Shown: positions 22,189 to 63,382 of the stretch, piece after piece
Position numbering within the stretch: the stretch's first letter is position 1
Layout: each line of letters starts with the position of its first letter
Assembly (NCBI GenBank): GCA_030248225.1
Contig: JASANE010017706.1
Location: 1-64,000 of the forward strand
Direction: 5' to 3'
Origin: Trileptium ribeirensis
Lineage: Eukaryota; Nematoda; Enoplea; Enoplida; Thoracostomopsidae
DNA length: 64,000 bases
The notes under the pieces: model-generated
What the model was told of the DNA's origin: nothing
What the model saw: only the letters and a program-made list of their open reading frames with translations
The model's database searches: none
Made by a program: the position numbers and the translations under genes

Positions 22189-22368
22189 ATGACTCACAAT
22201 CGGACTAAATGCTCCGTTCATGGGCTTTCGACCATTTTGGGCTCAAAAAAGCGTTGGGAACAAATTGCATGGAGCGCTGTTTTCACGGCTGTTAACATTA
22301 TCTCCATCTATTATTTGGTTCATACCGTACAAACCTATTTGAAATATGCCACCGATATCGCACATACT
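22189..22368 (+). CDS. Exon 1: cytoplasmic N-terminus, HG motif and TM1 of the DEG/ENaC channel
   Basis: Encodes 60 residues. KCSVHGLSTIL carries the His-Gly pair conserved before TM1 in DEG/ENaC channels, where changes at the Gly alter gating. KKRW then leads into a hydrophobic helix (about residues 27-45, AWSAVFTAVNIISIYYLV). The ATG at 22189 is the first in-frame Met after a stop at 22150-22152. No AG acceptor lies between that stop and the ATG, so the exon probably holds the true start. An out-of-frame ATG at 22167 opens a short upstream frame. The donor is GTAAGT at 22369, phase 0. The N-terminus is short for the family, so an upstream alternative first exon cannot be excluded. Confidence 0.85.

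Positions 22369-63382: not shown

What the first reader, a model, noticed from the sequence alone, without database searches (positions are those of the whole stretch)
22189..63382. DEG/ENaC channel with a C-type lectin domain, mucin stalk and EGF domains inserted in its ectodomain
Seen: one + strand chain of 14 exons with agreeing splice phases carries DEG/ENaC blocks (HG plus TM1, VPFPAITICNMNPYK, MILFCSYEGSEC, YYGRCFTFN, AGFQLAIH, EPYGKC) on both sides of a full C-type lectin domain, a 135-residue Thr-rich stalk and EGF modules. Known: DEG/ENaC ectodomains are Cys-rich finger/palm/thumb structures gated by protons, peptides or tethers to matrix. I do not know of a described channel with this architecture. 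Inference: a glycan- or matrix-binding arm projecting from the channel, possibly a mechanical or ligand gate, or a recognition receptor coupled to sodium current.
Basis: partly seen in the sequence, partly recalled or inferred. Interest (0 to 1): 0.93.

Follow-up and report, generated by a model that had tools for sequence, protein, structure and literature searches.

The report
Sodium channel with a lectin-headed arm
Fourteen exon-like stretches, when joined, read in one frame as a sodium-channel-family protein with a C-type-lectin-like head, a threonine-rich stalk and EGF modules set into its outer part; this arm is predicted to be cut loose by a furin-type protease and would likely work as a tether that helps open the channel.

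Summary
On the + strand, 14 exons (22189-63284) with GT/AG borders and agreeing phases at all 13 junctions join into an open 718-codon chain. Pfam finds ASC on both sides (3.4e-19, 1.8e-25), Lectin_C just above its cut-off (25.3 vs 22.6 bits, head alone) and EGF. Lectin_C vanishes if exon 5 is left out. Leaving out exons 3-10 gives one ASC match of 157 bits and keeps frame: the arm is a block set into the finger of a DEG/ENaC channel. TM2 and the filter lie beyond the window; no transcript was seen.
New here: exon 3 has two R-x-K-R furin-type motifs 50 residues apart, the second directly before the lectin head, in the interval where ENaC has its protease-activated GRIP domain. Exon 3 is also the least supported exon.
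Verdict: a real, unusual new variant of DEG/ENaC; a furin-released tether arm is the best mechanism, and it is inferred.

The parts
22189..22368 (+). Exon 1: start ATG, HG motif (22219-22224), first transmembrane segment; donor phase 0
   Evidence: Pfam ASC for exons 1-2 alone 63.5 bits
31205..31303 (+). Exon 2: VPFPAITICNMNPYK block, start of the finger; phase 0 to 0
   Evidence: exons 1-2 align to ENaC gamma and FaNaC1
33779..34004 (+). Exon 3: finger insert with two furin-type motifs; phase 0 to 1. Weakest exon: no Pfam match alone, no codon signal
33839..33850 (+). Proximal furin-type motif RSKR (residues 114-117)
   Evidence: sequence
33989..34000 (+). Distal furin-type motif RTKR (residues 164-167); the first lectin cysteine is residue 171
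   Evidence: sequence
35170..35332 (+). Exon 4: first part of the C-type-lectin-like domain; phase 1 to 2 (weak donor GTTAGT)
34241..35316 (+). Tandem array, 4 copies of 269 bp; three truncated copies of exon 4 precede the complete one
39706..39813 (+). Exon 5: middle part of the lectin-like domain; phase 2 to 2
   Evidence: needed for the Lectin_C match
45160..45305 (+). Exon 6: end of the lectin-like domain (WAPGQPNN ... WYD ... VC); phase 2 to 1
47390..47794 (+). Exon 7: 135-residue Thr-rich, mucin-like stalk (60 Thr among 134 complete codons); phase 1 to 1
50872..50985 (+). Exon 8: EGF module; phase 1 to 1 (weak donor GTTGAT)
53198..53286 (+). Exon 9: partial calcium-binding-type EGF (DIDEC...); phase 1 to 0
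54246..54317 (+). Exon 10: short linker; phase 0 to 0
55516..55712 (+). Exon 11: return to the channel finger (MILFCSYEGSEC); phase 0 to 2
59423..59517 (+). Exon 12: YYGRCFTFN block; phase 2 to 1
62076..62236 (+). Exon 13: AGFQLAIH block; phase 1 to 0
63185..63284 (+). Exon 14: EPYGKC ... YTIQA; donor CAT|GTAGGA, phase 1; the gene runs off the window before TM2

Best explanation
Read together, the 14 exons form in one frame a DEG/ENaC-family channel chain whose finger carries a C-type-lectin-like head, a Thr-rich stalk and EGF modules; they are likely spliced into one protein whose arm is predicted to be released at its head end by furin-type cuts and would act as a tether that gates the pore. 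Shown from sequence: the exon chain, the domain matches, the interval of the finger in which the block lies, that the block is frame-neutral, and two R-x-K-R motifs 50 residues apart with the second directly before the lectin head. Inferred: that all exons are spliced into one mRNA, and that TM2 follows beyond the window. Inferred: that a furin-type protease cuts both motifs in the secretory path. That would remove a 50-residue tract, as in ENaC, and leave the head as the free end of a stalk anchored through the EGFs to the finger and palm of the TM2 half. Inferred: the head binds a matrix, cuticle or cell-surface protein rather than sugar, so that pull or binding moves the finger and changes the gate. 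If the exon 3-10 block is skipped, the join stays in frame and would give an arm-less channel.
For: Frame and borders. ASC on both sides, Lectin_C, EGF. Order control: exons 4, 5 and 6 alone, and 4+6 without 5, give no Lectin_C match; 5+6 gives 18.2 bits, 4+5+6 gives 25.3. Channel continuity: exons 1-2 plus 11-14 give one ASC match over profile 4-297 at 157.2 bits. Place: the N part aligns to ENaC gamma 37-118 and the C part to 248-392; ENaC's GRIP domain lies between finger helices 1 and 2 (PMC6197857, passages), and its paired polybasic sites release inhibitory tracts (PMC8791634, abstract and passages). Two motifs by chance: 21 of 20000 shuffles of exon 3, 6 of 20000 of the ectodomain. No signal-peptide-like start exon found for the lectin part alone in 31304-35169 (0 candidates; the scan took single exons of 46-199 bases with eleven donor types). 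Phases: exons 4-6, 7 and 8 are each 1-1 modules, as exon shuffling gives.
Against: No transcript, no relative with the same architecture found and no structure model. Exon 3, which holds both cut motifs and is the only bridge in my model from exon 2 to exon 4, has no domain match alone and no codon signal. Two donors are weak. I chose borders partly so that frames agree. The furin-type sites are motif matches only. Most calcium/sugar ligands of the lectin domain are lost. The stalk is low-complexity sequence. TM2 and the filter were not seen.
Confidence: 0.5

Rival explanations
1. Two genes: a secreted or membrane lectin-mucin-EGF gene nested on the same strand inside an intron of an ordinary DEG/ENaC gene.
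For: Exons 1-2 plus 11-14 alone give a continuous ASC match and join in frame, so the channel profile does not need the arm exons. Exon 3, the bridge, is the least supported exon.
Against: No signal-peptide-like start exon found upstream of exon 4, within the limits of that scan. Exon 3 joins exon 4 in phase, and exons 9 and 10 join in phase back to exon 11. EGF with ASC in one protein is known by name in EGAS.
Confidence: 0.13
2. One gene, but the arm is optional: alternative splicing makes an armed channel and a plain channel, so that cells choose sensitivity.
For: Exon 2 (phase 0) can join exon 10 or 11 in frame; exons 1-2 plus 11-14 have a continuous ASC match.
Against: No transcript data; frame compatibility alone is weak.
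Confidence: 0.25
3. The arm is a ligand or adhesion receptor (cell recognition, immune or mating surface) that opens the channel on binding, without force.
For: A C-type-lectin-like head on a mucin-like stalk is a usual plan of recognition receptors (general knowledge); the Lectin_C match of the head is above cut-off.
Against: The calcium/sugar ligands are mostly gone; nothing here tells binding from force.
Confidence: 0.25
4. It is simply an EGAS channel of a divergent nematode, with the lectin part of no special role.
For: EGF plus ASC is what the name EGAS stands for; the nematode degenerin model TIGR00867 scores a little higher than TIGR00859 ENaC (151.4 vs 140.0 bits, both far below cut-off, for exons 1-3 plus 11-14).
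Against: Nothing in the passages read says that EGAS proteins have a lectin head or mucin stalk; EGAS sequences could not be compared here.
Confidence: 0.2
5. A decaying or misassembled locus: truncated exon 4 copies and a broken exon 5 copy mark a gene that no longer works.
For: Three truncated exon 4 copies and a decayed exon 5 copy.
Against: The chosen exon chain is open with no stop in 718 codons; the broken copies are extra copies.
Confidence: 0.05

Closest known systems
EGAS-1 to EGAS-4, C. elegans 'EGF plus ASC domain ion channels'
   Same: By name, EGF and ASC domains in one channel subunit (PMC10424705, passages).
   Different: In that paper EGAS subunits gave no current different from water-injected oocytes, so no function is known to borrow.
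ENaC alpha and gamma subunits (GRIP domain, dual cleavage)
   Same: Paired basic cleavage motifs in the finger interval between the TM1 side and the CFTFN side of the ASC fold.
   Different: ENaC has no lectin, mucin or EGF module (recalled). PMC8791634 calls the GRIP domain unique to ENaC within the family and links its site pairs to vertebrates moving to land; here the tract is 50 residues and followed by a large arm.
MEC-4 and other nematode degenerins
   Same: ASC fold; TIGR00867 deg-1 match; MEC-4 has a predicted plasmin site in its finger and plasmin raises MEC-4(d) currents (PMC8223032, abstract and passages).
   Different: No lectin/mucin/EGF arm is known to me in MEC-4 (recalled). Whether other degenerins also carry basic cut sites in this interval was not tested.
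CTLD-mucin-EGF surface receptors (thrombomodulin/CD93 group; abstracts of PMC6852297 and PMC12428824 in the listing)
   Same: Lectin-like head with EGF modules; glycosylated ectodomain.
   Different: They are single-pass receptors, not channels, and the order of modules differs (recalled).

Membership tests
DEG/ENaC (ASC, PF00858) | Profile match over the N-terminal and ectodomain part | tested here: met
   143.4 bits in the whole protein, 157.2 bits for exons 1-2 plus 11-14
DEG/ENaC (ASC, PF00858) | HG motif and first transmembrane segment | tested here: met
   HG at residues 11-12, hydrophobic stretch after it (by eye); aligned to ENaC gamma and FaNaC1
DEG/ENaC (ASC, PF00858) | TM2 with G/S-x-S selectivity filter | not testable with these tools
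   the gene runs off the window; the match ends at profile position 297 of 455
EGAS (EGF plus ASC) | EGF and ASC in one subunit | tested here: met
   EGF 29 bits between two ASC stretches in the joined protein
EGAS (EGF plus ASC) | Common descent with EGAS-1 to -4 | not tested
   no EGAS sequence on hand
C-type lectin domain (PF00059) | Profile match above the curated cut-off | tested here: met
   25.3 vs 22.6 bits alone, 23.0 in exons 1-6; not listed at E<=0.1 in the whole protein
Sugar-binding C-type lectin | Calcium/sugar ligands EPN or QPD ... E ... ND | tested here: not met
   QPN, E->Q, YD in the alignment to SP-D: 2 of 5 ligands kept (ligand positions recalled)
ENaC-type dual-cleavage (GRIP) activation | Two basic cleavage motifs in the finger interval between the TM1 side and the CFTFN side | tested here: met
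   RSKR and RTKR, residues 114 and 164; interval
ENaC-type dual-cleavage (GRIP) activation | GRIP fold (strands P1-P4 between helices 1 and 2) | not tested
   no structure model; past residue 94 one search shows no real match to ENaC gamma (a second stretch, 136-156, at -2.5 bits)
ENaC-type dual-cleavage (GRIP) activation | Cleavage occurs, and release of the tract activates | not testable with these tools
   needs expression

The most novel reading that the evidence does not exclude
An invertebrate sodium channel gained, apart from vertebrate ENaC, a pair of furin sites and uses them not only to drop an inhibitory tract but to unleash a lectin-headed mucin arm: a spring-loaded tether that couples matrix contact to the gate, built by nested exon shuffling (1-1 modules inside a 0-0 block) and switchable by skipping the block.
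Probability: 0.25. Interest if true: 0.85.

Novelty: new variant of a known kind. Interest (0 to 1): 0.62.

Why it matters
How DEG/ENaC channels turn pull or contact into opening is unsettled, and a tether to matrix has long been proposed for degenerins (general knowledge). A channel whose own chain carries a binding head, a stalk and a cut site would make the tether idea directly testable: remove the head, shorten the stalk or block the cut, and measure the current. It would also be a case of ENaC-like paired cleavage motifs outside the vertebrate ENaC subunits in which PMC8791634 describes them.

Tried and rejected
Homologue searches: the search for homologous proteins gave nothing at E<=0.001 for residues 535-717 (193 candidates), one weak frog ENaC gamma at E 0.062 for residues 1-300 at E<=10 (881 candidates) and nothing at E<=10 for residues 582-704 (34 candidates). 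So no relative with ASC plus Lectin_C was found, but the tool needs shared 5-residue words, so this is weak evidence of absence. Viral contigs: none. Rfam at gathering scores and ARAGORN on the window: none, so they gave no lead to the organism.

Rejected: that exon 3 joins exon 10 or 11 directly (out of phase); that an exon with the missing EGF cysteines lies in 53260-54200 (0 candidates in four phase combinations, with filters for pyrimidines, donor and two cysteines; an earlier scan of 53280-55500 for three cysteines also gave 0 in two combinations); that the stalk is a chance open frame of a pure DNA repeat (Thr codons ACA 29, ACG 18, ACT 12, ACC 1; the other two frames have 14 and 8 stops). 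Codon test: intronic stretches scoring as high were 0 of 400 for exon 4, 0 of 349 for exon 7, 8 to 55 of 400 for exons 2, 5, 6 and 8-14, but 130 of 400 for exon 1 and 248 of 400 for exon 3.

Literature: ten searches; searches used the words 'DEG ENaC', which had 0 occurrences in every listed paper, so they tested little. Passages of PMC6868747, PMC10854151 and PMC10396339 were looked at and hold channel and lectin words only apart from each other, or gene names without domains.

No structure prediction: the tool takes proteins read letter for letter from the window DNA, and the spliced chain is not one; I did not send it.

Full report
What is there. The window is 64,000 bases, 37.4% G+C, without N. 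The + strand from 22189 to 63284 holds 14 exons that I rebuilt from three-frame translations and checked as a chain. All 14 donors are GT, all 13 acceptors AG, the phases out of the exons are 0,0,1,2,2,1,1,1,0,0,2,1,0,1, and 718 codons are open. Introns run from 948 to 8836 bases. I chose borders partly so that frames agree, so the agreement alone is not proof; the domain tests below are the independent part. The last exon ends in a donor, so the gene goes on beyond the window; the second transmembrane segment and the filter were not seen.

Domains. Pfam finds ASC at 143.4 bits in the joined protein and EGF at 29 bits. Cut into pieces, the N part gives ASC 69.7 bits, the C part 90.3 bits, and the lectin part Lectin_C 25.3 bits against a cut-off of 22.6. 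Lectin_C was not listed in the whole-protein scan at E<=0.1; in exons 1-6 without the stalk it scores 23.0 bits beside ASC 68.4. As a control, exons 4, 5 and 6 alone and 4+6 give no Lectin_C match, 5+6 gives 18.2 bits and 4+5+6 gives 25.3: the match above cut-off needs the three exons in the order of the chain. Sequence matches to solved structures agree: surfactant protein D and Mincle among others for the head, FaNaC, ENaC and ASIC for the channel parts. Exons 8 and 9 joined give EGF 40.6 bits and EGF_CA 27.3 bits against 27.0; EGF_CA is below cut-off without exon 8 (15.5 bits).

Where the arm sits. Exons 1-2 plus 11-14, without exons 3-10, give a single ASC match over profile positions 4-297 at 157.2 bits; adding exon 3 changes it to 157.6. 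So the channel profile is continuous without the block. Exons 1-2 alone match up to profile position 84 and the C part starts at 128; with exon 3 the N part is aligned as far as 153, gaining 6.2 bits, so the alignments overlap there and the exact place is uncertain. By alignment the block lies between residues 118 and 248 of ENaC gamma. In ENaC the GRIP domain lies between finger helices 1 and 2 (PMC6197857, passages); that this interval of gamma covers it is recalled. Exon 2 leaves in phase 0 and exons 10 and 11 enter in phase 0, so the block is frame-neutral; inside it, exons 4-6 (head), 7 (stalk) and 8 (EGF) are each 1-1 modules. This is what exon shuffling leaves behind; that reading is inference.

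The paired furin-type motifs. Exon 3 holds R-S-K-R at residues 114-117 and R-T-K-R at 164-167, so a cut after each would free 50 residues and leave the lectin head, whose first cysteine is residue 171, at a new end. Two or more such motifs came up in 21 of 20000 shuffles of exon 3 and in 6 of 20000 of residues 54-717. In ENaC alpha and gamma, cutting at two basic tracts releases an inhibitory tract and activates the channel; PMC8791634 calls the GRIP domain unique to ENaC within the family and links the site pairs to the vertebrate move to land (abstract and passages; its sequences are ENaC subunits, and the word invertebrate has 0 occurrences). PMC8223032 says that little is known on proteases and nematode channels, and shows that plasmin raises MEC-4(d) currents (abstract and passages). 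Against this reading: exon 3 is the least supported exon (no Pfam match alone; 248 of 400 null stretches score as high in codon use), motifs are not cuts, and I could not check whether other degenerins have such motifs too.

The head is probably not a sugar binder. In the SP-D alignment the ligands E-P-N, E, N-D read here Q-P-N, Q, Y-D; which positions are ligands is recalled. The usual second disulfide of the fold also seems lost in that alignment, and the head has seven cysteines. I therefore call it C-type-lectin-like and expect a protein or matrix partner.

One gene or two. A nested gene would need its own start. A scan for signal-peptide-like ATG exons (46-199 bases, eleven donor types, phase 1) in 31304-35169 gave 0 candidates. 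The chain joins in phase on both sides of the arm. I give the nested-gene rival 0.13; cDNA would settle it.

How it likely works (inferred). The subunit is made as one chain, cut by a furin-type protease at one or both motifs, and placed in the membrane as two pieces held together by the fold. The TM2 piece then begins with the lectin-like head on a 135-residue stalk and two EGF modules that insert into the finger. Binding of the head outside the cell, with or without pull, would move the finger and thumb, as ligands and cuts do in relatives (general knowledge), and change the gate. Skipping of the block would give a plain channel.

Compared with what is known. EGF plus ASC is what the name EGAS stands for (PMC10424705, passages), so that part is not new. 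A lectin head and mucin-like stalk in such a channel were not found in my literature searches (weak because of the wording), in a review of chimerolectins (PMC12355970, term search: one 'channel' passage, about a toxin pentamer) or in a paper on nematode C-type lectin families (PMC9085898, term search: 'channel' and 'ASC' 0 occurrences). The library holds open-licence papers only, so this is not proof of absence from print. The organism is not known; TIGR00867 nematode degenerin scores a little above ENaC (151.4 vs 140.0 bits, both far below cut-off), which fits a nematode or a relative but proves nothing.

Limits. No relative with the same plan, no transcript and no structure model. The own genome could not be searched: 12 requests did not complete.

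Noticed in passing
34241-35316: Four 269-bp units, 99% alike; three carry a truncated copy of exon 4 with its acceptor but not its donor end. Recent tandem duplication, or an assembly error.
   Followed up: partly
39516-39684: Older copy of the exon 5 region (period 169, 84% matches) with indels; the one frame translated has stops: a decayed duplicate exon.
   Followed up: partly
23938-26153: Large minisatellite of about 86-bp units in intron 1.
   Followed up: no
26727-27628: 372-bp unit repeated 2.4 times, 94% alike, in intron 1.
   Followed up: no
10650-11096 (- strand): Transposase remnant, Pfam DDE_Tnp_1_7, 38 bits (1 of 10 open frames tested gave a match); that this family is the piggyBac type is recalled.
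   Followed up: partly
53198-53391: Exon 9 stays open past its donor to a stop at 53391 with further cysteines; an unspliced form would end the protein after the second EGF.
   Followed up: no
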